This document shows positions 4,271 through 19,605 of a stretch of 64,000 nt of DNA, one piece after another. A program made the position numbers and the translations under genes. The stretch is from Alloyangia mangrovi. GTDB lineage: Bacteria; Pseudomonadota; Alphaproteobacteria; Rhodobacterales; Rhodobacteraceae. Under the pieces are notes generated by a model. The model was not told the origin of the DNA. It saw nothing but the letters and a program-made list of their open reading frames with translations, and ran no database searches. Location of the stretch: contig NZ_NTHN02000024.1 in assembly GCF_002300555.2 (NCBI RefSeq), forward strand, positions 1 through 64,000, given 5' to 3'. Position 1 is the first letter of the stretch, and the number at the start of each line of letters is the position of its first letter.

Positions 4271-4283
4271 GTAAATTCTTTTC
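4271..4283 (-). promoter_or_regulatory. Operator-like 13-mer A1 (RpiR-type regulon)
   Basis: On the minus strand this reads GAAAAGAATTTAC, a variant of the GAAAATNAWTTNC element found twice in each of four divergent promoter regions of the sugar locus. It lies 42 bases upstream of the GMC start and 63 bases from A2 (six helical turns). Confidence 0.5.
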
Positions 4284-4333
4284 ACTTTAAGCCGCATGAA
4301 CGCCGGTGAATGCTGCAAAGTCAATAAGGTTGT

Positions 4334-4346
4334 GTAAAATATTTTC
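4334..4346 (-). promoter_or_regulatory. Operator-like 13-mer A2 (RpiR-type regulon)
   Basis: Minus strand GAAAATATTTTAC; the core AAAATATTTT is a perfect palindrome. It lies 79 bases upstream of the TIM-barrel gene at 4425. On the minus strand a TTGACT -35-like hexamer (4324-4319) sits between A1 and A2, so binding here could block the GMC promoter. Confidence 0.55.
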
Positions 4347-4424
4347 GGATGTTAGCGTCCCGTGGAAGCCAGCCGCCACTTGCTGCGCGGCGCCTCCGTT
4401 CCCACGTGAAAACAAGGATTTGCC

Positions 4425-5330
4425 ATGCAATTCGGCGTCAGTTCCTACAGTTTCCAGCCGCTCCTGCGGCGTCAGGAGATCACCCTCGAAGGGGTGTTCG
4501 AGCAGATCGCGGCCTCGGGCGGAACCCATATGGAATTGGCCACTCTGACCATCGGCCAGGGCCTCGAGACCATGCTGGAGTACGAGCTCTATGAGGACGC
4601 CGAAACCCGGGCGCGGCTCGAGGCGGCTGGCGCGAATTCGGGCATTGCACTGTCGGGCCTCTGCATCCCGGCAAGCTTCATTGATGAAGACGCGGCCACG
4701 CGCCGGGCGCAGATCGACCGGGCCAAGCGCTACGTCGATCTCTGCGCCGACATGGGGGTGGGGTTCCTGCGCACCGACGTCGTCCCCTGGGCGCTGCGGC
4801 CTGAGACCTACGCGCAGGTCGAGGCGCTCTTCCCGGTGATCACCGAAGCCTGTCTGGAACTGGCCGAGCACGCGGCGACCCGGGGCGTGGTGACAAGCAT
4901 CGAGAACCATGGCTTCCTGATGAACTCGAGCGAGCGCTGTCGCCGCCTCGTGCACGCGGTGGGCAGCCCGAACTTCCGCATGACGCTGGATGTCGGCAAT
5001 TTCCTCTGTGTCGACGAGGACCCGCTGATGGCGACGCGCAACTGCCTCGATATCGCCAGCTTCGTGCACCTGAAGGATTTCCTGCTGCGCAAACGCTATC
5101 CGGGGCCGGGCTGGCTCGAGACGCTGGGCGGGCGGCACATCGTCGGCACGGTCTTCGGTTTCGGCGACTTGGAGACGCGGGAGATTGTCCGGGCCATCGT
5201 GGGCGCGGGATTCGACGGCTACGTTTCGCTGGAGTTCGAGGGCAACGAGCCGACGCTCATGGGCTGCGACACCGGCCTTGGCAACGTCATCCGGATCTTC
5301 GACGAGGTGAAGGCCGAGCTGGTCGCCTGA
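4425..5330 (+). CDS. Sugar phosphate isomerase/epimerase-type TIM-barrel protein (first copy)
   Basis: A 301-residue xylose-isomerase-like TIM barrel (AP-endonuclease 2 superfamily). It shows the metal ligands typical of the fold: Glu in TSIENHG, Asp in TLDVGNF, His in FVHLKDF and Glu in VSLEFEGNE. Family members include 3-epimerases, 2-keto-myo-inositol dehydratase-type enzymes and the recently recognised 3-oxo-glycoside lyases/hydrolases. The gene is divergent from a GMC oxidase across a region with two regulon operators, so it probably acts on the product of the sugar oxidation step (inference). A paralogous protein is encoded convergently at 5400-6230. The exact reaction cannot be assigned from sequence. 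Confidence 0.85.
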   Translation: MQFGVSSYSFQPLLRRQEITLEGVFEQIAASGGTHMELATLTIGQGLETMLEYELYEDAETRARLEAAGANSGIALSGLCIPASFIDEDAATRRAQIDRAKRYVDLCADMGVGFLRTDVVPWALRPETYAQVEALFPVITEACLELAEHAATRGVVTSIENHGFLMNSSERCRRLVHAVGSPNFRMTLDVGNFLCVDEDPLMATRNCLDIASFVHLKDFLLRKRYPGPGWLETLGGRHIVGTVFGFGDLETREIVRAIVGAGFDGYVSLEFEGNEPTLMGCDTGLGNVIRIFDEVKAELVA

Positions 5331-5350
5331 GCACGGGAGCCGCTAGGCAA

Positions 5351-5383
5351 AAGGGGCGCGCCGGTTGTCCCGGCGGGCCCCTT
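5351..5383. terminator. Bidirectional hairpin between convergent TIM-barrel genes
   Basis: Fourteen-base arms (5351-5364 and 5370-5383) pair with a single mismatch around a 5-base loop; A-rich on the left and T-containing on the right. It lies between two convergent gene ends. Confidence 0.6.
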
Positions 5384-5399
5384 CCTGTTGCGTGGGTCC

Positions 5400-6230
5400 T
5401 CAGAGGACGCGCAGCGCCTCTACCCGCGCCCGGATCTCTGCGAGTCGCGCGCGGCCACCGCCGGGCACCTCGACCGAGGCCCACCCGCTGTAGCCGATCC
5501 CGCGCAGCGCCGCGTTCACTGCGGGCCAGTCGCAATCGCCCTCGCCAAGCTCGATGTCGAAGCCTTTCCACGGCCCCTCGGCATCCATCTTGCTGCGGCT
5601 GTATTCCTTGAGATCGACCCGGCAGATGCGCTCGCCCAGCACCTCGATCCAGTCGGTCGGATAGCCGTTGCGGAGGATATTGCCGATGTCGAGATACCAG
5701 CCCAACAGCGGGTGGTCGAAATGGTCGAGAAAGGCCGCGGCCTCGAGCGGGCTGAGCAGGAAGTTGTTCCAGACGTTCTCGATGGCGATGCGCACGCCGG
5801 TACGCTCGGCATGGGGCAGCAGCTGCTCGACGCCGGCGATGGCCCGGTCCCAGGCGGCGGCATAGCTGACCTCGGGGCTGACTACGCCGGGCACCAGCAG
5901 CACGGTTTCCGCACCGATGGTCCGCGCGGTCTCCAGCGCCGCGACCATCCCATTTACGCCCGCGGCGCGGGTCTCGGCGTCGGGCGAGGAGAGCGGGTGG
6001 CTCCAGTGGCGCGCGTTGATCACCCCGGGCAGGGCGACGCCGCTGGCCGTGCTGGCGGCGATCAGGTCGTCCAGCGGCATGTCCGTCGGGGCGTCGATCT
6101 CGACCCCGTCGTAACCCAGCTCGGCGAGCATGGCCAAGGTCTCGGCGATGTTCAGCTCTGGGGCTTCGATCATGCTCCACTTGAGGCTGATCCGGGCGAA
6201 GGGAAGCGGGCTGGTGGGCGGTTTGGTCAT
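5400..6230 (-). CDS. Sugar phosphate isomerase/epimerase-type TIM-barrel protein (second copy)
   Basis: I start this at ATG 6230 (MTKPPTSPLPFARISLKWSMI): the frame is open further upstream, but the extension is low-complexity and would run through the operator region. The result is 276 residues. It is an AP-endonuclease-2/xylose-isomerase-like barrel with putative metal ligands in IAIENVWN, YLDIGN, VDLKEY and ASVEVPGG. It is divergent from ridA-nagB across a region with two regulon operators and is clearly a different family member from the 4425 gene. Probable role: isomerase, epimerase or keto-sugar lyase in the same pathway (inference). Confidence 0.82.
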   Translation of the reverse strand: MTKPPTSPLPFARISLKWSMIEAPELNIAETLAMLAELGYDGVEIDAPTDMPLDDLIAASTASGVALPGVINARHWSHPLSSPDAETRAAGVNGMVAALETARTIGAETVLLVPGVVSPEVSYAAAWDRAIAGVEQLLPHAERTGVRIAIENVWNNFLLSPLEAAAFLDHFDHPLLGWYLDIGNILRNGYPTDWIEVLGERICRVDLKEYSRSKMDAEGPWKGFDIELGEGDCDWPAVNAALRGIGYSGWASVEVPGGGRARLAEIRARVEALRVL

Positions 6231-6293: not shown

Positions 6294-6306
6294 GGAAATT
6301 TCTTTC
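6294..6306 (-). promoter_or_regulatory. Operator-like 13-mer B1 (RpiR-type regulon)
   Basis: Minus strand GAAAGAAATTTCC, the most degenerate of the eight sites. It lies 64 bases upstream of the TIM-barrel start at 6230 and 75 bases from B2. Confidence 0.45.
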
Positions 6307-6309
6307 ATC

Positions 6310-6323: not shown

Positions 6324-6368
6324 CCGAGGAATCTATTGCCTAACTTCGCCGATCACGCCAGAAAAAAA

Positions 6369-6381
6369 GAAAATCAATTTC
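6369..6381 (+). promoter_or_regulatory. Operator-like 13-mer B2 (RpiR-type regulon)
   Basis: GAAAATCAATTTC, a near-perfect palindrome ending 14 bases before the ridA start and just upstream of its GGAG ribosome-binding site, where binding would block transcription. Confidence 0.55.
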
Positions 6382-6395
6382 TTGGAGCCCCTGCC

Positions 6396-6794
6396 ATGAC
6401 CATTCCCGGTATCCAACGCCTCGACGCCGCCGACACCCAGGCCGGCGGCCAGGAGCGCCCCTTTTCCAAGGCCGTGCGCGCCGGGGATTTCGTCTTCGTC
6501 TCGGGGCAGGTGCCGACGCGCGACGGCGAGGTGGTCGTGGGCAATATCGCCGTGCAGACCGAAGTAGTGATCGAGAACATCAAGGAAGTGCTGGCGCTGG
6601 CGGGCTGCGGGCTCGAGCACGTGGTGAAGGTGGGGGTCTGGCTCGATGACGCGCGCGATTTCTCGTCGTTCAACGCCGTCTTCAAGAAGCACTTCAGCAT
6701 CCACCCGCCCGCGCGTTCGACCGTGGAGTCGCCGCTGATGGTCGACGCCAAGGTCGAGATGGACGTGATCGCCTACAACCCGCTGAAGGGCTGA
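6396..6794 (+). CDS. RidA family enamine/imine deaminase
   Basis: A 132-residue Rid-family protein. I chose ATG 6396, with GGAG eight bases upstream, rather than the much longer open frame, because the protein then matches family length. It has the family motifs FVSGQVP, the conserved mid-region VVIENIKEVLALAGC and the C-terminal PARSTVESPLMVDAKVEMDVIAY, with the conserved Arg that binds the carboxylate of the substrate. RidA proteins hydrolyse reactive enamines/imines made by PLP enzymes. The gene is immediately followed by nagB, so it may handle an imine from amino-sugar deamination or from the PLP enzyme encoded at 12689 (inference). Confidence 0.85.
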   Translation: MTIPGIQRLDAADTQAGGQERPFSKAVRAGDFVFVSGQVPTRDGEVVVGNIAVQTEVVIENIKEVLALAGCGLEHVVKVGVWLDDARDFSSFNAVFKKHFSIHPPARSTVESPLMVDAKVEMDVIAYNPLKG

Positions 6795-6800
6795 TCCGCG

Positions 6801-7562
6801 GTGAAGATCCTGATCCTTGGGGATGCGGCGGCGGCGGCGGCGCGCGCGGCCGAGATCATCGCCGCGCAGGTCACCGCCAAGCCCGCCTCGGTGCTGGGCC
6901 TCGCGACGGGCGGGACGATGGAGGCGGTCTATGAACAGCTGATCGCGTTGCACCGCGCGGGCAGCGCCTCCTTTGCCGGTGCGCAGAGCTTCAACCTCGA
7001 CGAATATGTGGGGCTTTCGGGGGATCACCCCTGCTCCTATCGCCGCTACATGGCCGAGAAGCTCTTCGACCAGATCGATATCGCGCCCGGGTCCGCGCAT
7101 CTGCCCATGGGCGAGGTGGCGGACCCAGAGGCCGAGGCCGCGCGCTACGAGGCCGCCATCGCTGCGGCGGGTGATATTGACCTGCAGCTTCTCGGGCTGG
7201 GGCTGAACGGGCACATCGGCTTTAACGAGCCGACCTCGAGCCTCAGCTCTATCACCCGGCTGAAGACGCTGGAGCGCTCCACACGCGAGGCCAACAGCCG
7301 CTATTTCCCGGAGGGCGAGGAGCCGCCGCGGCTGGCGATCACCATGGGCATCGGCACGATCATGCGGGCGCGCGAGGTGCTGTTGGTCGCGACCGGCACG
7401 GCCAAGGCGCGGGCGGTGGCGCAGGTCATCGAGGGGCCGGTTTCGGCGCGATGGCCGGGCAGCGTGCTGCAGATGCACCGCCATGCGACGCTGGTGCTCG
7501 ACCGGGCTGCGGCGAGCGAGCTGGAGCTTTTCGACTATTACCTCGACGTGCACCCCGAGTGA
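6801..7562 (+). CDS. nagB: Glucosamine-6-phosphate deaminase
   Basis: A 253-residue NagB with GTG start 6801, six bases after the ridA stop. It converts glucosamine 6-phosphate to fructose 6-phosphate and ammonia. Visible motifs are GLATGGTMEAVYEQL (phosphate loop), FNLDEYVGLSGDHPCSYRRYM (catalytic Asp region) and LGLGLNGHIGFNEP (catalytic His/Glu loop). It is slightly shorter than the E. coli enzyme and lacks an obvious C-terminal extension. With nagA and the ROK kinase at 19680-21736 it completes GlcNAc to fructose-6-P, although the genes sit in separate operons of the same locus. Confidence 0.93.
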   Translation: MKILILGDAAAAAARAAEIIAAQVTAKPASVLGLATGGTMEAVYEQLIALHRAGSASFAGAQSFNLDEYVGLSGDHPCSYRRYMAEKLFDQIDIAPGSAHLPMGEVADPEAEAARYEAAIAAAGDIDLQLLGLGLNGHIGFNEPTSSLSSITRLKTLERSTREANSRYFPEGEEPPRLAITMGIGTIMRAREVLLVATGTAKARAVAQVIEGPVSARWPGSVLQMHRHATLVLDRAAASELELFDYYLDVHPE

Positions 7563-7584: not shown

Positions 7585-7606
7585 AGGGCGGTCCTAGGGC
7601 CGCCCT
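7585..7606. terminator. Hairpin between nagB and cutC
   Basis: Seven-base arms AGGGCGG/CCGCCCT at 7585-7591 and 7600-7606, followed by TTC. It overlaps the cutC stop codon and lies between convergent genes. No strong U-tract. Confidence 0.4.
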
Positions 7607-8334
7607 TCGTGGTTCAAGAGCAGGCGCTTCAACCCCGCCACGGTGGCGGCATCGGTGCGTCGCGCGCTCTCGGGCTGGAAACCGAAGCGGGCAATGGCGC
7701 CGGTCCCCGGATCGGGTTGCGAGGCGGAGGCATGGACTTCGCTCGGTGCGAGCACCTCGAGCAGGCCGGGCAGGGTGGCGGCGGAGACCCCGGCGCCGGG
7801 CATGATGCTCAGCCGACGCCCGGCATGGGCGGTCATCCCTTGCAGCCGGGCCAGACCTTCGGTCGCCGTAGCGGCGCCGCCCGAGCTGAGGATGCGCGAG
7901 ATGCCAAGTGCCGCCGCTTGATCGAGGGCTTCGAGCGGATCCTCCATGAGGTCGATGCAGCGGTGCAGGGTGAGATCGAGGCCCTTTGCCGCGGCAACCA
8001 GCCGCTGCATGACGGGCAGGTCGAGCGTCACAGAGCCCGCCTCGGAGCGCGTCGCACCGATCACCACGCCCGCGAGACCGGCGCGGGCCACGGCGGCGAT
8101 CTCTACCTCCATGGTGCCGACCTCCTCTTCGCTCCAGTCGAAACCTCCGGCGCGGGGGCGGATCATTGCCATGACCGGGATCGGCGCGCGGGCGGCGAGG
8201 GAGATAAGGCCGGGGCTCGGGGTAAGCCCGCCAAGCGCCAGCGCTGCACAGAGCTCGATCCGGTCCGCGCCGCCCTCGATGGCCGCGGCAAGACCGGAGG
8301 GGCTGTCGACGCAAATCTCCAGGATGCGGGTCAT
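7594..8334 (-). CDS. cutC: CutC family TIM-barrel protein
   Basis: A 246-residue CutC-family protein starting at ATG 8334, where its ATG overlaps the MFS stop (ATGA). Family motifs: LEICVDSPSGLAAAIEGGADRIELC, the TPSPGLI loop, VMAMIRPRAGGFDWS, GVVIGA and LTLHRCIDL, ILSSGG. CutC has been called a copper homeostasis protein, but direct copper chemistry has been questioned. Here it is the last gene of an rpiR-M81-MFS-cutC operon in a sugar locus, which favours an enzymatic role on a sugar-derived metabolite (inference). The separate copper-type bufferin operon in this window lies 23 kb away. Confidence 0.88.
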   Translation of the reverse strand: MTRILEICVDSPSGLAAAIEGGADRIELCAALALGGLTPSPGLISLAARAPIPVMAMIRPRAGGFDWSEEEVGTMEVEIAAVARAGLAGVVIGATRSEAGSVTLDLPVMQRLVAAAKGLDLTLHRCIDLMEDPLEALDQAAALGISRILSSGGAATATEGLARLQGMTAHAGRRLSIMPGAGVSAATLPGLLEVLAPSEVHASASQPDPGTGAIARFGFQPESARRTDAATVAGLKRLLLNHEGRP

Positions 8335-9560
8335 GACATCTCCTCTGCGCCAAGTGACGGGATTGGGCGCCAGCGTTCCAGTGCCACGAGGCCGAGCGCC
8401 CCGGCAAGACCGACGGCAATGCCCATGAAGGCGACCGTGGAATAGCTGCCGATACTGGTGCCGAGGCCGAAGAGCCCGGCGGCGATGGCGCCCGCGAGAA
8501 AGAGGTTCAGCGAGATCAGCGAGGCCGAGAGGCCGGGGCGGTCCGCGATCAGCTCTTGCAGGTAGCCCAGCGGCAGGGTGATCAGGGCCGAGGCCGCGGT
8601 GCCTCCGAGAAAGGCGCCGGCGATGATCATGCCCGGCGAAGTGGCGAGGGCGATGGTGCCGAGGTAGCCGGTGTAGAGTGCCATGGCGATGGCCAGCGTG
8701 GTGACCGTCGAGATGTAGCGGGTGATCCGTGCCCAGGCGAGCAGGAAGACCAGCTCCATGCCGGCGACGATGCCGACGGTGATCCCCACATCGCCGGTGC
8801 TGCCTCCGGCGCGGCCGGTCATGATCAACGGCATGACGGCGGCATGCACGTGGATCGCTGAGGTGATTGCCGCGGTGCCGAGCACGCGCATCGTCACCGA
8901 GGGGCGGGCCAGCAGCCCGAAGGCGCCGAGCAGCGAGACCTTGGGCGGGCGCTTCGCCGGATCGCCGCTGCCGCCGCGGGGCATGGTCAGCTTCAGCACG
9001 ATCAGGACCGCGGCGGCAGCCAGCGCCGCCACGAGGAAGGCGGGCAGCATCGAGCCGCGCCCGGCCAGCGCGAAGCCCAGCACCCCGGGCACGAGAATCC
9101 ATGCCGCCGAGACCATGCCGCGCAGGACCGAGGACATGGCGGCGCGGTCGGCGCTCGGCAGCCCGTCGGAAAACACCCGCCCGGCGGCGAAGAGCATCGG
9201 TGTCAGCCCGTTGAAGATCGACACGGGCAACAGCAGGGCGAGCACAAAGACGGCGGGCTGCGGGAAGAGGAAGATCGCCCCGTAGCCGGCGATGCCGATG
9301 GCGGCGAGCCACATCAGCAGCTTGCGGTAGCCCGTGTCGCGGTCCGCCAGCATGCCGAGGTAGATCGAGGCCAGCACGTTGATGATCGCCGCAGTCAGGG
9401 TGAGCGCGGAGAAAGCGCTGTCCGAGAGACCCAGTTCGCGGATCGCCACCACCGATTTGTAGGGCGCGGTCGAGGCCGCCGCGATGCCGCAGCAGAAGAC
9501 CGCCGCGGCGCAGGCCCGCAGACCTGGCGAGGCGCGAAGGGACTTGAGGATGTCGAACAT
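8331..9560 (-). CDS. MFS transporter (SetA/SotB sugar-efflux-like)
   Basis: A 409-residue protein with about twelve hydrophobic segments and the MFS loop 2-3 motif region YLGMLADRDTGYRKLL. The general look, with short loops and a repeated six-helix arrangement, resembles the sugar efflux transporter group. It sits between the M81 peptidase and cutC, overlapping cutC by four bases, so it is translationally coupled. Its likely job is export or uptake of a sugar or peptide intermediate of this pathway (inference); direction and substrate are not decidable. Confidence 0.78.
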   Translation of the reverse strand: MFDILKSLRASPGLRACAAAVFCCGIAAASTAPYKSVVAIRELGLSDSAFSALTLTAAIINVLASIYLGMLADRDTGYRKLLMWLAAIGIAGYGAIFLFPQPAVFVLALLLPVSIFNGLTPMLFAAGRVFSDGLPSADRAAMSSVLRGMVSAAWILVPGVLGFALAGRGSMLPAFLVAALAAAAVLIVLKLTMPRGGSGDPAKRPPKVSLLGAFGLLARPSVTMRVLGTAAITSAIHVHAAVMPLIMTGRAGGSTGDVGITVGIVAGMELVFLLAWARITRYISTVTTLAIAMALYTGYLGTIALATSPGMIIAGAFLGGTAASALITLPLGYLQELIADRPGLSASLISLNLFLAGAIAAGLFGLGTSIGSYSTVAFMGIAVGLAGALGLVALERWRPIPSLGAEEMS

Positions 9561-9654
9561 CGGGCTCTCGGAGGGGCGCGGCTCGCGGGCCGCGGGGGAA
9601 CGGAGGGCTCCTCGGCGCGGCTTCGTGCGCCGAGGGGCGTGATGAGCTGTCAGC

Positions 9655-11097
9655 TCACGCGCGGGCGGAGCGGGCGGGGGCGGGGGTAAAGGTCGCTTCC
9701 ATATCCCAGGGGTAGAGGCCCGGTGCGCGGTGGCGGCTCTCGAGGCGCGGGATGTCCTGGTTCACCACGCCATCGGTCAACGCCATGAGGTTCGGGTTGG
9801 CGATCGGCGCGAGATCCGGCGACAGGTACCCCGATTTCACCACCAGCAGGCCGACCTTGCGCGGGTCGAGGCCGAGGAGATCGAAATCCTCGAAATTGTG
9901 GTAGGGCCTGCGCCGCGCTGCGAGCACGACGGTGATCCCGCCGGTCTTCACCACGGCCTGGGCAAAGGCGCCGCCGGCGCCCTCCACGAGGTTCACCACG
10001 GTGAAGCGGGCGCTGGCGCTTTCGCCTGCCGGGTCGAGCTTCGCGCCGACGGTCAACTCGAGCTCGGCGCCGAGGCCGGCGGCGAAGCAGGCGGCGACGG
10101 CCTCGGGGTCGGTGATCCCGGCGATGAGTGCGTCTTGCCAATCCCGCTCGATCAGCGCCTTCAGCACGAGCCCATTGTCGCCGACCCCGCCGCCGGTGGG
10201 GTTGTCGCCGCTCTCGGCGAGGATCACCGGCGCGGTGCCTGCCTTGGCAGCGATCTCCAGCATCTCGTCCAGCGGGCCGGTCACGGGGCCGAAGGCGAAG
10301 TCTCCGCGCGCATCCCAGTAGGCCTGCGCCAGTTCGGTCGTAACGGCCTCGGCCTCGGCGGGATCGGTGGCGGTGACGATGGCCGCCGCGGTGCCGCGCG
10401 GCTCGTCGGCCCAGACGTAGCCGACCATCTGGTCGGCGGACCAAATACCCGGGCGCAGGTCATGGCCGGGCAGGGCGGCATAGAGTGATTTCGCCGGCTG
10501 GTCCTCGGTCGAGGAGCGCTCGCCCGGCATCAGCACGGGGATCTTCGCCCAGGTGACAAAGGGCTTCTCGCCGCTGCGCAGGCAGCGCAGCAGCATCTCC
10601 CAGGCGCGCTGCATGGTCTCGGCCACGTCGATATGCGGCGCGGTGCGATAGGCGGCGAACATGTCGATCTGGTCGATGATGCGCTGGCTGACGTTGCCGT
10701 GCAGGTCGTAGCTGACCGAGATCGGCACGTCGGGGCCGACGAGATCGCGCACCGCCTTGATCCAGTCGCCTTCGGCGTCCCACATGCCGTCCACGTGCAT
10801 CGCGCCATGCATGGCGAGATAGATGCCGTCGAGCGGCAGCGCCGCTTCGAGCCGGGACAGCAGGTTGGCCTTGAAGCCGTCGTAGGCGGCGCGATCCACT
10901 GGCCCGCCGGGCACGGCGCGGGCGTGCAGCAACGGCAGGATCTCGACGTCCTGCTGCGGCAGGAAGGCGAAGTGGGCCGAGGCGGTGAGTTCGTCTTCGC
11001 GCATCACGGTGAAATCCTCAGCCCGGATGAGCACGGGGTTGTAGGTCGAGCATTCGGTGTGGATGCCGCCGACGGCGATCCGTTTCTTCGTGGTCAT
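9655..11097 (-). CDS. M81 family metallopeptidase, MlrC type (first copy)
   Basis: A 480-residue protein with ATG 11097 chosen (MTTKKRIAVGGIHTECSTYNP). It belongs to the MlrC/M81 group: an N-terminal DUF1485 domain with GGIHTECSTYNP, the zinc-site region ISVSYDLHGNVS (D131-N135), and a C-terminal MlrC domain containing ESGDNPTGGGVGDNG. MlrC of microcystin degraders cleaves linear peptides, but most homologues have no known substrate. It is the second gene after rpiR on the same strand. A second, divergent M81 gene is at 21818 in the same regulon, which is unusual and suggests a paired role on a peptide- or amide-linked sugar substrate (inference). Confidence 0.87.
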   Translation of the reverse strand: MTTKKRIAVGGIHTECSTYNPVLIRAEDFTVMREDELTASAHFAFLPQQDVEILPLLHARAVPGGPVDRAAYDGFKANLLSRLEAALPLDGIYLAMHGAMHVDGMWDAEGDWIKAVRDLVGPDVPISVSYDLHGNVSQRIIDQIDMFAAYRTAPHIDVAETMQRAWEMLLRCLRSGEKPFVTWAKIPVLMPGERSSTEDQPAKSLYAALPGHDLRPGIWSADQMVGYVWADEPRGTAAAIVTATDPAEAEAVTTELAQAYWDARGDFAFGPVTGPLDEMLEIAAKAGTAPVILAESGDNPTGGGVGDNGLVLKALIERDWQDALIAGITDPEAVAACFAAGLGAELELTVGAKLDPAGESASARFTVVNLVEGAGGAFAQAVVKTGGITVVLAARRRPYHNFEDFDLLGLDPRKVGLLVVKSGYLSPDLAPIANPNLMALTDGVVNQDIPRLESRHRAPGLYPWDMEATFTPAPARSARA

Positions 11098-12089: not shown

Positions 12090-12102
12090 GAAAATCATTT
12101 TC
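12090..12102 (+). promoter_or_regulatory. Operator-like 13-mer C1 (RpiR-type regulon)
   Basis: GAAAATCATTTTC, a perfect palindrome and the best match among the eight sites. It lies 61 bases upstream of rpiR and 74 bases from C2. A plus-strand TTGACA (12112-12117) lies between the two sites. Confidence 0.62.
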
Positions 12103-12163
12103 TTATTTTCGTTGACACTTTCGCATGTGACCTCAAGAGTGGCCAGTGTTTTCGGCAATCTAC

Positions 12164-12176
12164 GAAAATAATTTGC
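12164..12176 (+). promoter_or_regulatory. Operator-like 13-mer C2 (RpiR-type regulon)
   Basis: GAAAATAATTTGC, a near-perfect palindrome just upstream of the ribosome-binding site of the gene at 12204 and exactly 74 bases from C1 (seven helical turns). Confidence 0.58.
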
Positions 12177-12689: not shown

Positions 12690-13786
12690 TGTCGGATCTG
12701 GCAAACATCTGGCCCGCGCCGGGCACGCCGCTTTCCGAGCTGCTGACGCCGCTGCCGGTCATCGACGAGGCGCGCATGGCGGCCAACATCGCCCGCGCGC
12801 AGACGCATATGGATAGGCTCGGCAGGTCCTTCCGCCCGCATATCAAGACGCACAAGCTGCCCGAGGTCGCGCGCGCGCAGATCGCGGCGGGAGCTGTGGG
12901 GATCAACTGCCAGAAGGTGACCGAGGCGGAGGTCTTCGCCGAAGCCGGCTTCGACGACATCCTGATCACCTACAACATCCTCGGGGCGGCCCGTCTGGCG
13001 CGACTGGACGCGCTGAACGCGCGGGTGGCGCGCCTGTCGGTGACGGCGGACAGCTCCGAGGTCGTGGCCGGGCTTGCCGCGACCTTCGGCGCGGGTGCCC
13101 CGCTGACGGTGCTGGTCGAATGCGACACCGGCGGCAAGCGCTGCGGTGTGCAGACGCCCGAGGCGGCGGCGGCCCTCGCGGCCGAGATCGCGGCGGCGGA
13201 GGGGCTGCGCTTCGGCGGGCTGATGACCTACCCGGCACCGGGCGGCGCCGCGGCGGTCGAGCGGTTTGTGACTTCGGCGAAGGCGCTGCTGGACGCGGCG
13301 GGGCTCGAGTGCCCGGTGGTGACGGTCGGCGGCACGCCGGATTTCTTTGCCGCCGGGGACATCCCTTCCGCGACCGAGCACCGCGCCGGGACTTATGTCT
13401 ACAACGACCGCGCGATGGTGCGGGCGGGCCATGCCTCCCTGGAGGATTGCGCCATGCACATTCTGGTCACCGTGGTCTCGCGCCCGACGCCGGACCGTGC
13501 AGTGATCGATGCAGGCTCGAAGGCGCTGACCTCGGACCTGCTGGGCTTTCAGGACCACGGGCTCGTCGTTGAATACCCCGGCGCGCGGATCTCCGGCCTG
13601 TCGGAAGAGCACGGCGTGGTCGATCTCTCGGGGATCACGGGCGAAGGGCCGAAAGTGGGCGATGTCTTGCGGGTGATCCCGAACCACACCTGCGTCGTCA
13701 CCAACCTCTTCGACCGGATGGTCTTCCACGATGGCGCGGCGGTGACCCGGGTGCTTGAGGTGGCGGCGCGCGGCACCGTCTGGTGA
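12689..13786 (+). CDS. D-threonine aldolase/D-serine dehydratase-like PLP enzyme
   Basis: 365 residues from ATG 12689. The N-terminal alanine-racemase-type barrel has the PLP-lysine motif RPHIKTHKLPE (residues 49-59). The middle has VLVECDTGGKRCGV and TVGGTPDFF. The C-terminal D-serine dehydratase-like beta domain carries the metal-site histidine and cysteine in PNHTCVVTNLFD. Family members cleave D-threonine or D-3-hydroxyaspartate to glycine or glyoxylate plus an aldehyde, or dehydrate D-serine. Placed in an amino-sugar and M81-peptidase locus, it may deal with a D-amino acid or beta-hydroxy amine released there (inference). The specific substrate is unresolved. Confidence 0.85.
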   Translation: MSDLANIWPAPGTPLSELLTPLPVIDEARMAANIARAQTHMDRLGRSFRPHIKTHKLPEVARAQIAAGAVGINCQKVTEAEVFAEAGFDDILITYNILGAARLARLDALNARVARLSVTADSSEVVAGLAATFGAGAPLTVLVECDTGGKRCGVQTPEAAAALAAEIAAAEGLRFGGLMTYPAPGGAAAVERFVTSAKALLDAAGLECPVVTVGGTPDFFAAGDIPSATEHRAGTYVYNDRAMVRAGHASLEDCAMHILVTVVSRPTPDRAVIDAGSKALTSDLLGFQDHGLVVEYPGARISGLSEEHGVVDLSGITGEGPKVGDVLRVIPNHTCVVTNLFDRMVFHDGAAVTRVLEVAARGTVW

Positions 13787-13854: not shown

Positions 13855-13881
13855 ACGCCCCCGCGTGGATCGCGGGGGCGT
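13855..13881. terminator. Strong bidirectional hairpin
   Basis: Perfect 11-base arms ACGCCCCCGCG/CGCGGGGGCGT with a 5-base loop, followed by CCTCTTTGTTT on the plus strand and TTATC on the minus strand. It lies between the convergent gene ends at 13786 and 13931. Confidence 0.7.
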
Positions 13882-13930
13882 CCTCTTTGTTTGCTCTCCT
13901 GCGCCGAGGGCGCCGCCTCTTTGGCGGGGA

Positions 13931-15055
13931 CTACGCGGTTGCCGCGGCCGGGATCGGCATCGAGCTGTCGACCTTGCGTGTGAGCGCCATGCCCTCGGCA
14001 TCGAAGAGGTGGCAGTCGGCAGCAAGGAAGGAGAGCGTCGCGGGCGTCTCCGGCGCCACCGGAGAGGAGCCCGGCAGCAGGGCGGAGATCGTGCCCACGC
14101 CCTCGAGTTCGGCATAGGCCACGGTGTTTACCCCCAGCCGTTCGACCACGGTCGGAACCACGTCGATCGACAGATCGCCGCCGGCCTGGCTCAGGTGCTC
14201 GGGGCGGATGCCGAGCGTGATCGGGTTGCCCTCGAGGCTGCGGGGCGCCTCGACCGGCACGGTGATCGTGCCGCCGGTGACGAGGTTCACCGTGGCGCCC
14301 TCGGGGCCGACCGCAGTGCAGGTGCCGGGCAGGAAGTTCATCCGCGGGTTGCCGATGAAGCCCGCGACGAAGAGGTTGTCGGGCTTGTGGTACAGCTCCA
14401 GCGGCGCGCCGACCTGGCTGATGCTGCCCCCGTCGAGCACCACGATGCGGTCGGCCATGGTCATCGCCTCGACCTGGTCGTGGGTGACATAGATCATCGT
14501 CGCCTTGAGCTTCTGGTGCAGCGCGGTCAACTCGATGCGCATCTCTGCGCGCAGCGCGGCGTCGAGGTTCGACAAGGGCTCGTCGAAGAGGAAGATCGAC
14601 GGCTGGCGTACGATGGCGCGGCCGATGGCGACGCGCTGGCGTTGGCCGCCCGAGAGGTTCCCCGGTTTCTGCTGCAGTCGGTTTTCCAGTTGCAGCACCC
14701 GGGCGGCGCGCATCACGCGCTCCTTGATCTCGGCCTCGGGAAGCTTCTCGACGCGCAGCGGAAAGGCGATGTTCTCGAAGACCGACATATGCGGGTAGAG
14801 CGCGTAGGACTGGAACACCATGGCGATGCCGCGCTTGACCGGGGGCAGGTCGTTGACGCGGATCCCGTCGATCGTGCACTCGCCCTCGGTGATCTCTTCC
14901 AGCCCGCAGATCATCCGCAGCAGCGTGGACTTGCCGCAGCCCGAAGGCCCGACGAAGACGACGAATTCGCCATCCCGGATGTCGAGATCGATCCCGTGGA
15001 TGACCTCAAATTTGTTGAAGCGTTTCTTCACACCGCTCAGGGCAAGCTGTCCCAA
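13931..15055 (-). CDS. Sugar ABC transporter ATP-binding protein (UgpC/MalK type)
   Basis: 374 residues. The ATPase domain has Walker A GPSGCGKST, the LSGGQRQR signature, Walker B IFLFDEPLSNLD and the His switch YVTHDQ. It is followed by the C-terminal OB-fold (TOBE) regulatory domain of the MalK/UgpC group, with GIRPEHL. It is the last gene of the leftward Gfo/Idh-permease-permease-binding protein-ATPase operon and energises import of the sugar recognised by the 15141 protein. Length and domain order are normal for the family. Confidence 0.92.
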   Translation of the reverse strand: MGQLALSGVKKRFNKFEVIHGIDLDIRDGEFVVFVGPSGCGKSTLLRMICGLEEITEGECTIDGIRVNDLPPVKRGIAMVFQSYALYPHMSVFENIAFPLRVEKLPEAEIKERVMRAARVLQLENRLQQKPGNLSGGQRQRVAIGRAIVRQPSIFLFDEPLSNLDAALRAEMRIELTALHQKLKATMIYVTHDQVEAMTMADRIVVLDGGSISQVGAPLELYHKPDNLFVAGFIGNPRMNFLPGTCTAVGPEGATVNLVTGGTITVPVEAPRSLEGNPITLGIRPEHLSQAGGDLSIDVVPTVVERLGVNTVAYAELEGVGTISALLPGSSPVAPETPATLSFLAADCHLFDAEGMALTRKVDSSMPIPAAATA

Positions 15056-15140
15056 GGGAAAGTCCTTTCCTATTCAAGCGGTCCGGACCCGAAGGTCCGG
15101 ACCATGAGAACCCGTGTGGGCTCGGATCATTCAGGCTGCA

Positions 15141-16349
15141 TCACTCGAGCTCGTTGAGCGCGGCGTCGGCCTTGGCCAGCGCGTCGGCGGGCTCGGCTGC
15201 GCCGGTCACCACGGATTGCACCATCTCGATCATGACGTTCTGGAAGCCGCGATAGTCGGTGAAGAGCGGTTCCGGACCACCGAACTCGATGCCGTCGATG
15301 TAGGGCGCCCAATAGGGGTTCTCGGCGACCAGCGCGTCGATCTTAGCGGAGGGACGCAGCGGGGTGAGGCCCTCGGCAAGGTCATATTCCTCCTGCGCTT
15401 CCGGCGCGGTGAGGAACTTGGCCAGCTCCATCGCCTTTTCCTCGTAGCCGGTGCCGGAGAAGACGGCGAGGCTGTCGGTGATCAGCAGCGTGCCGGGGCC
15501 TTCGGCTTCCGGGCCGAGCGGCAGGTTGGCCACGCCCCAGTCGATGTCGGTGTCCTGCAGGCGCGAGACGGCGCCGATCGAGGCGTGCATCATCGCCACG
15601 CCGCCATCGAGGAAGATCGCGCGGACCTCGTTCTGCTCGTAGGCGGTCGGGCCTTCTTCCGAGTAGGGGACGAGGGCCTTGTAGGCTTCCAGCGCTTCGA
15701 GGTTCTGCGGCGAGTTCAGCACGATGTTGCCATCGGCGTCCACGACCTGGCCGTTGTTGGTGTACACCCAGTGCAGGAACTGGTGCATGGTGTTGTCGAA
15801 GGTCTTGGCGACGAGGCCGAAACCGGCGCTGTCGGTGTTCTCGGTGACGGCCTTGGCGGCGTCGATGACCTCGGCCCAGGTCTTGGGCGGGCTTTCCGGG
15901 TCGAGCCCGGCTTCCTTGAAGAGGTCCTTGTTCCAGTAGAAGGCCTTGGTCGAGAAGGCGACCGGCACGCCCCACTGCTTGCCCTGGTAGGTCACGGTGT
16001 CGACCACGTTGGGGAAGTAGGACGCCTTTTCCTCGTCGCTCATCGGCACCGGCTCGATCAGGCCGAACTCGGCGAATTCCTTCAGGGTGCGCGAGCCGAC
16101 GTAGGCGAGGCCCACGGGGGTGCCGGCGACCGCGAGCGTGGTCACCTTGTCCTGGCACTGGCCCCAGCCGACGACCTCGGGAGCCACGGTCCAGCCTTCG
16201 TTCTCGGCTTCCCACTGGTCGATGTACTTCTGCTGGACCGGGTTCATGTTGTCGCCGCAGACGATCATCGTGATCTCTTCGGCCATGGCCGGCATTGCGG
16301 CGGTCAGCGCGACGAGCGCGGCGCCGGTGCGAAGAAGGGTCTTGGTCAT
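15141..16349 (-). CDS. Extracellular sugar-binding protein (ABC importer)
   Basis: 402 residues with a Sec signal peptide (MTKTLLRTGAALVALTAAMPAMAEE, cleavage near AMA). It belongs to the family 1 carbohydrate-binding protein group, with the typical KQWGVPVAFSTKAFYWNKDLFKEAGLDP segment and PPKTWAEVIDAAKA. It is periplasmic and delivers ligand to the two permeases. From its locus (NagA, ROK kinase, NagB) an N-acetylglucosamine-containing ligand such as a GlcNAc glycoside, chitobiose or a muropeptide is likely (inference). It lies between the permease and ATPase genes. Confidence 0.9.
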   Translation of the reverse strand: MTKTLLRTGAALVALTAAMPAMAEEITMIVCGDNMNPVQQKYIDQWEAENEGWTVAPEVVGWGQCQDKVTTLAVAGTPVGLAYVGSRTLKEFAEFGLIEPVPMSDEEKASYFPNVVDTVTYQGKQWGVPVAFSTKAFYWNKDLFKEAGLDPESPPKTWAEVIDAAKAVTENTDSAGFGLVAKTFDNTMHQFLHWVYTNNGQVVDADGNIVLNSPQNLEALEAYKALVPYSEEGPTAYEQNEVRAIFLDGGVAMMHASIGAVSRLQDTDIDWGVANLPLGPEAEGPGTLLITDSLAVFSGTGYEEKAMELAKFLTAPEAQEEYDLAEGLTPLRPSAKIDALVAENPYWAPYIDGIEFGGPEPLFTDYRGFQNVMIEMVQSVVTGAAEPADALAKADAALNELE

Positions 16350-16540
16350 TTCTGTTCTCTCCTGTTGGTGCCCTGTTGGGGCGGGCCGGTTCTTGCCGCT
16401 TGTGCGGCGGGCCTTTCTGGCTCCCCTGTCCCGGGGCGGTCTTCTGCGGCCCCCTTATGCGGAAGCCGCCGGTCACCCCCTCCCTCGGGGGCCGTGGTGG
16501 GCTTCCGCGCGCGCGGCGCGGACGCCGGGTCTTGCGCGGC

Positions 16541-17401
16541 CTACTGCTTCACCGCCCCGGCGGTGAGGCCGGCGACAAGGTAGCGTTGCAGCGCGAAGAT
16601 CAGGATCATCGCCGGGGCGATGCCGACGAAGCTGGCGGCCATGAGCTCGTTCCAGATCACCTCCTGGCGACCGAAGTAGGCGTAAAGGCCGATCGGAAGC
16701 GGCATGAACTCGGTCTTGGAGTTGAAGGTCAGCGCGAAGATGAACTGCTGGGCGTAGGCGCCGATGAAGGTGGTGATGGCGACCACGGTGATGCCAGGCA
16801 TCGCCAGCGGCAGGATCACCCGGCGCAGGATGTAGAAGTGGCTGGCGCCATCGACATAGGCAGCTTCGTCCAACTCGCGCGGGATGCGGCGCATGTAGGT
16901 CGAGAGCAGCCAGATCGCCGTCGGGATCAGGAAGGCCACGCCCGGCACGATCATCGACCAGTAGGTGTTGAGCATGCCGTAGGCGCGCATCAGCCGGAAC
17001 AGCGGGATCAGCAGCACCGCGCCCGAGAACATGTTCACCGCCAGGAAGGCACCGAGCAGCGTGCCCGAGCCGCGGAAGTTGATCCGGGCGAAGGCGTAGG
17101 AGGCGGGCACCACGAGCAGCAGCACCACAACGGTGATCACTGTCGAGATGAAGAAGGAGTTGAAGATGTAGCGGCCGAACTCGGGCACGCTTTCCCACAT
17201 GGTGAAATAAGCCTTGAACGAGCCGTTCTCGGGCAGGAAGCGGTAGGGTGTCGAGAACAGCAGCCCGAGCGGCTTGAGCGACACCAGGAAGCCCTCGATG
17301 AAGGGGGCCAGCACGAAGAACAGGAACACGAAGATGCCGCAATACATCAGGACGACTTCCCACCAGCGATAGCGGTCGATCATGGCGTTTTTCTTCATCA
17401 T
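16541..17401 (-). CDS. Sugar ABC transporter permease (MalG type)
   Basis: 286 residues with six predicted membrane segments. The EAA loop reads ELDEAAYVDGASHFYILRRVILPLAMPG and contacts the ATPase. ATG 17401 overlaps the stop of the partner permease by four bases (ATGATGA); a second in-frame ATG three bases later is an alternative. It belongs to the carbohydrate ABC permease group and is coexpressed with the MalF-like partner, binding protein and ATPase. The 191-base gap to the binding-protein gene has no gene and no clear motif that I can see. Confidence 0.9.
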   Translation of the reverse strand: MMKKNAMIDRYRWWEVVLMYCGIFVFLFFVLAPFIEGFLVSLKPLGLLFSTPYRFLPENGSFKAYFTMWESVPEFGRYIFNSFFISTVITVVVLLLVVPASYAFARINFRGSGTLLGAFLAVNMFSGAVLLIPLFRLMRAYGMLNTYWSMIVPGVAFLIPTAIWLLSTYMRRIPRELDEAAYVDGASHFYILRRVILPLAMPGITVVAITTFIGAYAQQFIFALTFNSKTEFMPLPIGLYAYFGRQEVIWNELMAASFVGIAPAMILIFALQRYLVAGLTAGAVKQ

Positions 17402-18282
17402 GTCGTCATCCTCTTCGACAGCTTGGTGACGGCGCGGAAGTAGAGCAGGGCAAAGGCCGACAGGAACAGGCAGATCACCACGGCGCGCGCCGCGCCCTCG
17501 CCGAACTTCTTGGAGCCGAGCGCGGTCGAATAGGTGTCGATGATCATCGTGGTGGTTGAGCCCGAGGGGCCACCCTGGGTCAGGATCCAGATCGGATCGA
17601 ACGAGTTGAAGGTCGAGATCAGCGAGATCATCGACATGGTGATCGCCGCCGGGAAGATCATCGGCAAAGTGATCCGGCGCATCCGGTAGAGACGGCTCGC
17701 CCCATCGGTCCAGGCGGCCTCGTGCAGGTCCTGCGGCACCGACTGCACGGCGGCGAGCATGTACATCGTCACCATCGGCACGCCGATCCACACGTCGGTG
17801 ATGATCGTCGCCCAGAAGGCGGTGTGGCCATAGGCGAGGAAAGCGACCGGCCCGTCGACCAGCCCGAAGCGCTGCAGCAGGCCAGAGATCATTCCGAACT
17901 GGCCGTTGTACATCCAGCCCCACATGAAGATGCCGATGGCCATGGGCACGATCCACGGCGGCATGGTCAGGATGCGGAAGAGCGCCCGGCCGGGCAGGGC
18001 GGCATTGAGCAGCATCGCCCCGGCGGTGCCGATGATCATCTTGATCGAGACCGACAGGAAGGTCCAAAGGAAGGTCCGGCCGATGATCGTGGCGAATTCG
18101 GCGTCGAAGATTTTCGCGTAGTTCTCCCAGCCGATGTAATTTGTGGTGCGCCGCAGCGAGGCGTCGGTGAACGACAGGTTCACCGTCTGCAGCAGCGGGT
18201 AGACCACAATGGCGGACACATAGGCCAGCGCGGGGATCAGCAGGATCCAGGCAAAGATGACGGCGGACTTCTGCGCGCTCAT
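17398..18282 (-). CDS. Sugar ABC transporter permease (MalF/UgpA type)
   Basis: 294 residues with six membrane segments; the EAA loop reads DLHEAAWTDGASRLYRMRRITLPMIFP. It overlaps the upstream Gfo/Idh gene (TGATG) and the downstream MalG-type permease (ATGA), indicating tight translational coupling of all three. It forms the heterodimeric channel with the 16541-17401 protein. Confidence 0.9.
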   Translation of the reverse strand: MSAQKSAVIFAWILLIPALAYVSAIVVYPLLQTVNLSFTDASLRRTTNYIGWENYAKIFDAEFATIIGRTFLWTFLSVSIKMIIGTAGAMLLNAALPGRALFRILTMPPWIVPMAIGIFMWGWMYNGQFGMISGLLQRFGLVDGPVAFLAYGHTAFWATIITDVWIGVPMVTMYMLAAVQSVPQDLHEAAWTDGASRLYRMRRITLPMIFPAAITMSMISLISTFNSFDPIWILTQGGPSGSTTTMIIDTYSTALGSKKFGEGAARAVVICLFLSAFALLYFRAVTKLSKRMTT

Positions 18283-19442
18283 CAGGCCGGGACCTTCGCG
18301 GTCAGGGCCTCGTCATAGAGATCCCAGGTGCGCGACATCTCTATGACCGTGCGCTTGGCGCGCGCCTCGTCCATCGCCATGGCGAGCAGCCCGGCCTCGA
18401 GCGCGTCGAGCACCGAGACGGGCTGTTTCGCGCCCGTCAGCACCGAGGCGATGACGCCCTTGGCCATCTCCTCGTCGGCGCCGTAGTGCTGCGAGAGGTC
18501 GCTGGCCTGATAGGTCTTGCGCTCGAGCGGCTGACGGGTGTGGCTGTCGGTGACATTGAGGAAGCCGCGGACGAAATCGCCCTCGGCCATGCCGCGCGTG
18601 CCGATCACCGCGAAGCGGCGGAAGTCATCGGGCACGTTGAGGTTGGTGTGGAAGTTCAGCGCCGCGCCATTCTCGTATTCGACGATGGCCACCTGGTAGT
18701 CGATGATCTCGGCGTCGCTGTCGAAGACCTTGTCGGTGCCGTTCCAGCCCGAGGGTTTCTGGGTGTAGACGCCGAGGTCGTTGATGCCGCGGTGGCGCGG
18801 GTCGTTGGCGGGCACGAACGTGCGGCGTCCGCCGAAGCTGCTCACCCGTTCGGGGCGGGCGCCGATGACACCGTTGTAAAGGTCGATGTCGTGACAGCAT
18901 TTCTCCAGCATGAAGCCGCCGGCCCAGCGGTCGTAGCGCCTCCAGTCGCGCATGAAGAAGGCGCCGTGGTAGGGCGGGATGTGCTCGCTGGCCTCGATCG
19001 AGACGACGTCCCCCAATTCGCCCCGCGCCTGCGCCGCGCGCAAGTCTGTGTAGAGCGGCGCGTAGCGCAGCACGAGGCCGATCAGCAGGTTCTCGACACC
19101 GTACTTGGCCAGCAGCCGGGCCATTTCGAAGCTGTCTTCCTTGGTGGTGACGACGGGCTTTTCGGAGAAGACCTTCACGCCGGCCTCGAAACCCGCGCGG
19201 ATGTGTTCGAGGTGCATGCAGTTGGGCGAGCCCACCATCAGCAGGTCGAGGTCTTCCGCCTTCAGAAGCTCTTGCACGGTCTCGTACCGGGTGCCCGCGG
19301 AGATGCCCTTTTCCTCCAGCAGGCCCATGCCCGCAGGGGCGGGATCGACGTAGCCGGCGATCTCGAAATCAGGATGCATTTGCGTGAAGACCTGGCTCAG
19401 GTAGCCTAGACGATACCCAAGACCGACGATGCCGACTTTCAT
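18282..19442 (-). CDS. Gfo/Idh/MocA family oxidoreductase (second copy)
   Basis: 386 residues. Rossmann motif GIVGLGYRLGYLS, the EKP motif in VFSEKPVVTTK, and a C-terminal domain with GGFMLEKCCHDIDLYNGV (the conserved active-site His/Asp region). It is only distantly similar to the first Gfo/Idh copy at 1582. It is the first gene of the importer operon and shares the operator-containing promoter region 19443-19679 with nagA. Probable role: NAD(P)-linked oxidation or reduction at a ring carbon of the imported sugar (inference). Confidence 0.87.
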   Translation of the reverse strand: MKVGIVGLGYRLGYLSQVFTQMHPDFEIAGYVDPAPAGMGLLEEKGISAGTRYETVQELLKAEDLDLLMVGSPNCMHLEHIRAGFEAGVKVFSEKPVVTTKEDSFEMARLLAKYGVENLLIGLVLRYAPLYTDLRAAQARGELGDVVSIEASEHIPPYHGAFFMRDWRRYDRWAGGFMLEKCCHDIDLYNGVIGARPERVSSFGGRRTFVPANDPRHRGINDLGVYTQKPSGWNGTDKVFDSDAEIIDYQVAIVEYENGAALNFHTNLNVPDDFRRFAVIGTRGMAEGDFVRGFLNVTDSHTRQPLERKTYQASDLSQHYGADEEMAKGVIASVLTGAKQPVSVLDALEAGLLAMAMDEARAKRTVIEMSRTWDLYDEALTAKVPA

Positions 19443-19518
19443 TCTCGATCCCTGTTCTTCTCTCGGGCGAGGGTGCCTTCCGCGACGGTGGGTGACGCGA
19501 AGCTGTCGCTCGAATTAC

Positions 19519-19531
19519 GTAATTTATTTTC
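19519..19531 (-). promoter_or_regulatory. Operator-like 13-mer D1 (RpiR-type regulon)
   Basis: Minus strand GAAAATAAATTAC. It overlaps a perfect 12-base palindrome AATTACGTAATT (19513-19524). It lies 77 bases upstream of the Gfo/Idh start and exactly 74 bases from D2. Confidence 0.58.
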
Positions 19532-19592
19532 GTAGACTGTGGGTCGGTTTCGTGACAGTCAATATAAAAATGCGAAAGACAGCGACTATGGT

Positions 19593-19605
19593 GAAATTCA
19601 TTTTC
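19593..19605 (-). promoter_or_regulatory. Operator-like 13-mer D2 (RpiR-type regulon)
   Basis: Minus strand GAAAATGAATTTC, a near-perfect palindrome 75 bases upstream of the nagA start. A TTGACT -35-like hexamer on the minus strand (19561-19556) lies between D1 and D2. Confidence 0.58.

What the first reader, a model, noticed from the sequence alone, without database searches (positions are those of the whole stretch)
4271..19605. Eight copies of one 13-bp palindrome, arranged as four helically phased pairs, define an RpiR-type regulon
By eye, the same element (consensus GAAAATNAWTTNC) occurs exactly twice in each of the four divergent promoter regions of the sugar locus: 4271/4334, 6294/6369, 12090/12164 and 19519/19593. 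Within-pair distances are 63, 75, 74 and 74 bp, that is six or seven turns of the helix. I noticed no other full-match copy elsewhere in the window. The promoters serve all genes from 1582 to 24070, including rpiR itself. Known: RpiR/MurR proteins bind short AT-rich palindromes and carry a SIS domain that binds a phosphosugar. Inference: a looping or cooperative dimer-of-dimers repressor that ties the whole locus to one ligand.
Basis: partly seen in the sequence, partly recalled or inferred. Interest (0 to 1): 0.85.

Follow-up and report, generated by a model that had tools for sequence, protein, structure and literature searches.

The report
Paired RpiR operators bracketing sugar promoters
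A marine bacterium's amino-sugar gene cluster carries four pairs of matching DNA sites, each pair set about six or seven helix turns apart around one promoter and kept that way in relatives, which suggests that one sugar-sensing protein grips both sites of a pair to switch the genes off.

Summary
The eight sites are real: five match the stated consensus exactly, two have one mismatch, one has two. In the window's 5.53-Mb genome all 5 exact places lie in this locus. Four congeneric genomes keep the whole locus and all four pairs. Over 14 genomes I compared 41 homologous pairs: 63 bp in 6 of 6 at the GMC promoter, 72-75 bp in 35 of 35 elsewhere. Pairs persist in rearranged loci whose RpiR is 68%, 66% or 48% identical.

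Measured from start sites that I inferred, all eight operators fall on one helical face, best period 10.5 bp.

Best reading: a tetrameric RpiR repressor related to RccR/HexR bridges two operators and blocks RNA polymerase until an amino-sugar phosphate releases it. No binding was tested. Paired RpiR sites are already described (RccR, MurR, IolR), so this is a new variant of a known kind. The window's own rpiR is frame-broken at a G-run; relatives' copies are intact.

The parts
4271..4283 (-). proximal operator of the GMC promoter, centre about +11 from the inferred start
   Evidence: one mismatch to consensus; conserved; geometry
4334..4346 (-). distal operator of the GMC promoter, centre about -52
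4296..4324 (-). inferred promoter (TTGACT, 17 bp, GTTCAT) of the GMC and Gfo/Idh genes 4229-1582
   Evidence: TTGACT at the same offset in 6 of 6 genomes
6294..6306 (+). distal operator of the RidA-NagB promoter, centre about -72; weakest of the eight (two mismatches)
   Evidence: exact consensus in G005 and G015 at the same place
6369..6381 (+). proximal operator of the RidA-NagB promoter, centre about +2 (+3 in the window)
   Evidence: exact consensus
6336..6364 (+). inferred promoter (TTGCCT, 17 bp, CAGAAA) of ridA-nagB
   Evidence: TTGC at this offset in 10 of 11 genomes; L147 has TTGAAT
12090..12102 (+). distal operator of the 12204-gene promoter, centre about -52; also the site nearest to rpiR
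12164..12176 (+). proximal operator of the 12204-gene promoter, centre about +22
12112..12140 (+). inferred promoter (TTGACA, 17 bp, AAGAGT) of the 12204-13786 genes; its second hexamer is poor
   Evidence: TTGACA 7-9 bp after the distal operator in 13 of 14 genomes, absent in L062
19519..19531 (-). proximal operator of the MocA2 promoter, centre about +1
19593..19605 (-). distal operator of the MocA2 promoter, centre about -73
19534..19562 (-). inferred promoter (TTGACT, 17 bp, CAGTCT) of the Gfo/Idh and ABC transporter genes 19442-13931
   Evidence: TTGAC 28-30 bp after the distal operator in 10 of 10 genomes
11165..12029 (-). rpiR (HTH_6 and SIS domains), frame broken at the G-run 11882-11888 inside the HTH
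   Evidence: HTH_6 split over two frames; open 287-aa frame in 4 of 4 congeners
1582..4229 (-). Gfo/Idh oxidoreductase and GMC oxidoreductase genes
4425..5330 (+). xylose-isomerase-like TIM-barrel protein
5400..6230 (-). second xylose-isomerase-like TIM-barrel protein
6396..7562 (+). RidA-type protein and glucosamine-6-phosphate deaminase NagB (TIGR00502 above its cut-off)
7594..11097 (-). CutC-like, MFS transporter and M81/MlrC-like genes downstream of rpiR
12204..13786 (+). 161-aa protein without a Pfam or NCBIfam match, and a D-serine dehydratase/BhcC-like protein
13931..19442 (-). ABC sugar transporter (ATPase, binding protein, two permeases) and Gfo/Idh oxidoreductase (MocA2 in my labels)
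19680..24070 (+). N-acetylglucosamine-6-phosphate deacetylase NagA (TIGR00221 above its cut-off), ROK kinase, second M81/MlrC-like protein, short-chain dehydrogenase (start apparently out of frame)

Best explanation
The eight palindromes are operators of the RpiR-family regulator encoded in the locus, a relative of HexR and RccR. They work in pairs. Each pair lies on one face of the helix, 63 or about 74 bp apart, and encloses one promoter. A tetramer (dimer of dimers) most likely binds both members at once, bends the DNA into a tight loop of about six or seven turns and blocks RNA polymerase. A phosphorylated sugar of the pathway, most likely glucosamine-6-phosphate or N-acetylglucosamine-6-phosphate, would bind the SIS domain and relieve it. 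Shown by sequence: the pairs, the concentration of exact sites in this locus, the conserved spacing, one conserved promoter-like element per pair. Inferred: the start sites and hence the same-face geometry, that RpiR is the binder, the loop, repression rather than activation, and the ligand.
For: Exact sites: 25 of 27 exact places in the five same-genus genomes with the locus lie inside it; the 15 congeners without a close rpiR orthologue have 20 places, none within 1 kb of another. Site columns are 85-100% invariant across five congeners against 26-54% of the other intergenic columns. 41 of 41 homologous pairs in 14 genomes are spaced 63 or 72-75 bp. The non-divergent MocA2 promoter of L147 keeps its pair. 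All eight centres share one helical phase, R = 0.951, Monte Carlo p about 1e-5, 10.5 bp the best of 60 periods tried. RpiR residues 1-85 are invariant in four congeners. Nearest solved relatives 8ju9 and 8k3b, E about 1e-39; 8k3b is RccR with KDPG, shown as a tetramer (PMC10810197, passages). RccR binds two 15-bp sites at aceE with apparent cooperativity and signs of DNA bending, over the mapped start site (PMC5489143, passages). Six of the nine RccR ligand contacts have the same residue here, R277 by numbering only. NagA and NagB are among the regulated genes.
Against: No binding, transcript or start-site data. I assigned the promoters from conservation and assumed a 17-bp spacer; RidA's -35 is only TTGC and the 12204 gene's second hexamer is poor, so the phase p-value is not independent of my choices; for RidA I used the relatives' 74 bp, not the window's 75. 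Spacing could be fixed by promoter geometry alone. Second sites are weak at the 12204-gene promoter of L056-L060 (matrix score 12.0, with an overlapping register one base away) and L061 (13.2). L062 lacks TTGACA at that promoter. The window's rpiR is frame-broken. At Caulobacter iolC mutation of one of two IolR motifs changed expression in complex medium but mutation of the other did not (PMC2597717, passages). SpNanR, an RpiR member, is an activator (PMC12713135).
Confidence: 0.7

Rival explanations
1. Two independent dimers per region without looping: each operator acts by simple occlusion, and equal spacing only reflects promoter geometry.
For: Proximal operators at MocA2 and RidA overlap the inferred start site, where one dimer could already block. 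At the 12204-gene promoter the proximal operator keeps a fixed distance to TTGACA while the distal one shifts by 1-2 bp. In the window all four regions are divergent. At iolC one of two IolR motifs could be mutated without effect in complex medium (PMC2597717, passages).
Against: Three regions share 72-75 bp and the fourth is one turn shorter; both operators stay at a non-divergent promoter in L147; distal sites near -72 lie well upstream of the inferred -35.
Confidence: 0.18
2. RpiR acts as an activator or a dual regulator here, as SpNanR or SiaR do, with the distal operators (-52, -72) serving as activator sites.
For: Distal operators end 9 bp before the -35 at two promoters; SpNanR activates (PMC12713135); SiaR both represses and activates with CRP in a phase-dependent way and GlcN-6P as co-activator (PMC2946308, abstract and passages).
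Against: Every pair also has a member at or downstream of the inferred start (+1 to +22), the usual place of a repressor site (general knowledge).
Confidence: 0.15
3. Another transcription factor, encoded elsewhere, binds the sites.
For: Presence of rpiR and of the sites in the same genomes cannot by itself separate rpiR from other genes of the locus.
Against: No other DNA-binding regulator was seen among the locus proteins scanned; a pair lies beside rpiR in the window; the core resembles known RpiR sites, GAAA/TTTC arms in SpNanR and GGAA/TTCC in IolR.
Confidence: 0.05

Closest known systems
RccR of Pseudomonas (RpiR family) at the aceE promoter
   Same: Closest relative of known structure; two pseudo-palindromes flanking a stretch with hypersensitive bands, apparent cooperativity, binding that covers the mapped start site (PMC5489143, passages)
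   Different: Half-sites TGTAGT/ACTACA; sites reported 68 bp apart, which as a gap would be 83 bp centre to centre; other RccR targets have one 28-bp site; ligand KDPG, and three of nine ligand-contact positions differ here
MurR of E. coli
   Same: Tetramer proposed to bridge two adjacent sites that overlap the -35 and -10 boxes (as told in PMC12713135)
   Different: Sites 17 bp apart, 47 bp in all, not six or seven turns; cell-wall sugar pathway
IolR of Caulobacter (RpiR-like) at iolC
   Same: Two copies of a GGAA-N6-TTCC palindrome, 59 bp apart by their stated positions; alphaproteobacterial sugar-type locus (PMC2597717, passages)
   Different: Only one promoter there has two copies; the two were not equivalent when mutated; 59 bp is not a whole number of turns
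SiaR of Haemophilus influenzae
   Same: RpiR-type regulator of an amino-sugar pathway whose action depends on helical phase; GlcN-6P as effector (PMC2946308, abstract and passages)
   Different: A single SiaR operator paired with a CRP operator, not two RpiR operators
NanR of Streptococcus pneumoniae
   Same: RpiR tetramer stabilised by a sugar phosphate; looping between its sites proposed (PMC12713135, abstract, Discussion part 1, section on mechanism, passages)
   Different: Activator; single sites plus a degenerate half-site 23 bp away; looping not shown

Membership tests
RpiR/MurR family regulator | N-terminal HTH_6 plus C-terminal SIS domain | tested here: met
   Intact orthologue L031: HTH_6 68.4 bits, SIS 64.2 bits; in the window both are present but split over two frames
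RpiR/MurR family regulator | binds short palindromes in promoters of sugar genes | not testable with these tools
   Sites and genes fit; no binding assay
RpiR/MurR family regulator | SIS domain binds a phosphorylated sugar | tested here: inconclusive
   Six of nine RccR ligand-contact residues are the same, three differ; R277 compared by numbering only
HexR or RccR orthologue | reaches the curated HexR score | tested here: not met
   NCBIfam HexR model PRK11302 is the best match, 189.7 bits against a cut-off of 296
Loop-forming repressor with paired operators | two operators in helical phase around or near a promoter | tested here: met
   41 of 41 pairs at 63 or 72-75 bp, one promoter-like element within each region; phase test
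Loop-forming repressor with paired operators | tetrameric protein bridging the two operators; phase-dependent repression | not testable with these tools
   Tetramers known for relatives only
NagQ/NagR/NagC regulons of N-acetylglucosamine use | regulator of GntR, LacI or ROK family | tested here: not met
   Those families per PMC5343134 (passages); here an RpiR-type protein

The most novel reading that the evidence does not exclude
Operator pairs on one helical face around a single promoter are a general mode of action of RpiR/HexR-type regulators in these alphaproteobacteria: the tetramer is a molecular ruler with preferred lengths of about 4, 6 and 7 helix turns. In 133 stretches upstream of RpiR-family genes I found 26 pairs of palindromes with RpiR-like half-sites against 0.4 expected; 10 of 26 are 43-44 bp apart and 4 of 26 are 72-74 bp apart.
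Probability: 0.35. Interest if true: 0.7.

Novelty: new variant of a known kind. Interest (0 to 1): 0.5.

Why it matters
RpiR-family tetramers have been proposed to bridge sites or loop DNA, and RccR shows cooperativity and bending at one promoter, but in the texts that I saw nobody had altered the spacing between two RpiR operators. Here one regulator seems to control four promoters with two loop lengths that differ by one helical turn and with different placements around the start site, preserved in divergent relatives. Inserting half and whole turns would test the looping idea directly. The motif and spacing rule would also help to predict RpiR targets in marine alphaproteobacteria.

Tried and rejected
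Palindrome at 61947 as a ninth site: rejected for different symmetry and gene context. Two extra perfect palindromes outside the locus (G005 C20:200203, G013 C11:247480): single, no second site scoring 12 or more in the 5-kb stretch; neighbouring genes unrelated by my reading of the ORFs. Of the 34 one-mismatch places outside the locus in the own genome, 17 were held as loci and checked for a partner within 130 bp: 2 of 17 had one scoring 12 or more, at 31 and 129 bp; the other 17 were not checked. A matrix scan of the whole genome was not possible; pattern scans stand in for it.

Family-wide spacing, results for and against. Strict scan of 80 upstream regions: 1 pair against 1.1 expected at word length 13, 4 against 2.5 at 14, 0 against 1.3 at 15, 7 against 1.4 at 16. 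Looser scan of the same 80: 17 pairs at score 14 or more against 3.2, Rayleigh p = 0.013 at 10.5 bp. Second sample of 53 regions (one cut to 303 bases), planned as a confirmation: 6 against 2.8, p = 0.51, so it did not confirm, with little power. Guided scan of all 133: 26 pairs in 19 regions against 0.4, p about 0.01; its half-sites came from papers but were completed after I had seen, orthologues in it are not independent, and the L127 pair (72 bp) is the same region as the L148 pair counted among the 41. My note says 5 pairs at 72-74 bp; the recount gives 4.

Dropped before counting: L053-L055 are the same contigs as G005, G015 and G013 by length and position; L149 (RpiR 33% identical, pair 74 bp apart) is not among the 41. 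Pairs were assigned by me from matrix hits, taking the higher-scoring of overlapping registers; the other register would change a distance by 1 bp. The first Pfam calls used wrong frames for three stretches (5287-6180, 13865-15157, 15114-16583), repeated on the right ones. The name NTF2 in my scripts for the 12204 gene was a guess; no family matched. The ligand could not be narrowed beyond amino-sugar phosphates.
Full report
What is there. The window holds an amino-sugar locus at 1582-24070. Its 21 genes include N-acetylglucosamine-6-phosphate deacetylase and glucosamine-6-phosphate deaminase (both above an NCBIfam cut-off), a ROK kinase, an ABC sugar transporter, two Gfo/Idh oxidoreductases, two M81/MlrC-like proteins and an RpiR-type regulator. 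Genes run outward from four divergent intergenic regions, so all could be served from there; that they form operons is inferred from strand and spacing.

The sites. Matrices trained without a region still rank its two sites in the top 9 of 63,988 positions. In the whole genome exact matches occur at 5 places, all five here. Among 20 genomes of the genus, the five with the locus have 27 exact places, 25 of them in the locus; the 15 in which no close rpiR orthologue was found have 20 places, none within 1 kb of another.

Conservation. Four congeners (G005, G009, G013, G015) have the same 21 genes in the same order. In the four intergenic alignments 85, 85, 96 and 100% of site columns are invariant against 48, 26, 46 and 54% of the others. 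Seven further named loci (L056-L062, RpiR 66-87% identical) and two unnamed ones (L147 68%, L148 48%) keep the pairs in each homologous region that lies in the fetched stretches. Count of distances, 41 pairs in 14 genomes: 12204-gene promoter 74 bp in 11, 73 in 2, 72 in 1; MocA2 promoter 74 in 8, 73 in 2; RidA promoter 74 in 7, 73 in 3, 75 in 1 (the window); GMC promoter 63 in 6 of 6. Gene order differs in L061, L147 and L148, yet the pair goes with its promoter. The second site is weak at the 12204-gene promoter of L056-L061.

One promoter per pair. Between the operators lies TTGAC at a near-constant offset in 10 of 10 (MocA2), 13 of 14 (12204 gene, not L062) and 6 of 6 (GMC) genomes, and TTGC in 10 of 11 (RidA, not L147). 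A TTGAC on either strand is present by chance in 10-12% of shuffled versions of such stretches. In L147 the ROK gene (13934-14830 +) and MocA2 (14985-16136 +) run the same way, and a 73-bp pair lies between them. So I read a pair as the control element of one promoter. Whether the opposite genes (TIM-barrel genes, rpiR, nagA) are served too is open; I identified no second promoter.

Same face. I take +1 as the eighth base after a hexamer that begins 17 bp after the -35. Operator centres are then -73/+1 (MocA2), -72/+2 (RidA, with the relatives' 74 bp), -52/+22 (12204 gene) and -52/+11 (GMC). All eight fall at 0.5-2.0 bp modulo 10.5. Mean vector length is 0.951, Monte Carlo p = 1.3e-5; proximal sites alone give p = 0.009 and distal alone 0.007; the best of 60 periods between 8 and 14 bp is 10.5. 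These values assume random placement and rest on promoters that I assigned, so they are strong hints and not proof.

The protein. In the window rpiR is split over two frames at a run of seven G (11882-11888) inside the HTH. A second break seems to lie in a seven-G run (23364-23370) before the short-chain dehydrogenase, whose Pfam matches begin at profile positions 14 and 17, and the odd 75-bp distance comes from a seven-A run (6362-6368). Three homopolymer oddities in one draft contig suggest sequencing error; phase variation is not excluded. Orthologues in four congeners have open frames holding the same 287 residues' length, with residues 1-85 identical. The nearest solved structures are 8ju9 and 8k3b (E about 1e-39); 8k3b is RccR with KDPG, shown as a tetramer (PMC10810197, passages only). 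Of nine RccR ligand contacts named there, six have the same residue in the congeners (S139, R152, S183, S185, K270, R277, the last by numbering beyond the aligned stretch) and three differ (H148, H164 and S188 are N, G and N). That fits a phosphosugar other than KDPG. Glucosamine-6-phosphate or N-acetylglucosamine-6-phosphate is my guess from the genes and from SiaR (PMC2946308, abstract and passages).

Mechanism. RpiR structures reported so far are tetramers, and bridging of two sites and looping have been proposed, for MurR and SpNanR among others (PMC12713135, sections). RccR binds two sites at aceE with apparent cooperativity and signs of strong bending, over the start site (PMC5489143, passages). 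The anatomy here fits a tetramer that holds both operators on one face and encloses the polymerase site. Against it stands that at iolC one of two IolR motifs could be mutated without effect in complex medium (PMC2597717, passages). Occlusion by separate dimers is the main rival; activation is the next.

How general. Unguided scans upstream of other RpiR-family genes of the same family of bacteria were mixed: first sample p = 0.013, second, meant as confirmation, p = 0.51 with six pairs. A guided scan of all 133 regions gave 26 pairs against 0.4 expected, 10 at 43-44 bp and 4 at 72-74 bp; it is post hoc and holds related genes. This is the novel case, not a conclusion.

Novelty. Ten literature searches, limited to open-licence PMC papers and read mostly as listings, led to paired RpiR sites at RccR, MurR, VvNanR and IolR targets. 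I saw no description of this regulon or of same-face pairs as a rule. I rate it a new variant of a known kind.

Noticed in passing
window 11882-11888, 23364-23370, 6362-6368: Two seven-G runs coincide with frame breaks in rpiR and, apparently, the start of the short-chain dehydrogenase; a seven-A run gives the one deviating pair distance. Homopolymer sequencing error or phase variation.
   Followed up: partly
window 61945-61960: Palindrome CCGAAA-N4-TTTCGG in the divergent region between a binding-protein-like gene (60585-61667 -) and an agmatinase-like gene (62028 +), names by my reading; probably another regulator's site.
   Followed up: partly
window 9655-11097 and 21818-23323: Two M81/MlrC-like genes inside an amino-sugar locus, both also present in L061, L147 and L148; their role is unexplained.
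   Followed up: no
L085 (upstream of another RpiR-family gene): Three TGTAG/CTACA-type palindromes at 0, 44 and 73 bp.
   Followed up: partly
L149 from 8123: A more distant RpiR (33% identical) with a TGTAA/TTACA-type pair 74 bp apart, in a neighbourhood with another M81 gene and ABC transporter genes.
   Followed up: partly
G002 (same genus, no close rpiR orthologue found): Six exact consensus places, more than any other congener without the locus; scattered and unexplained.
   Followed up: partly
window 12204-12689: A 161-aa protein without a Pfam or NCBIfam match, yet 54-97% identical beside RpiR in the relatives compared.
   Followed up: no
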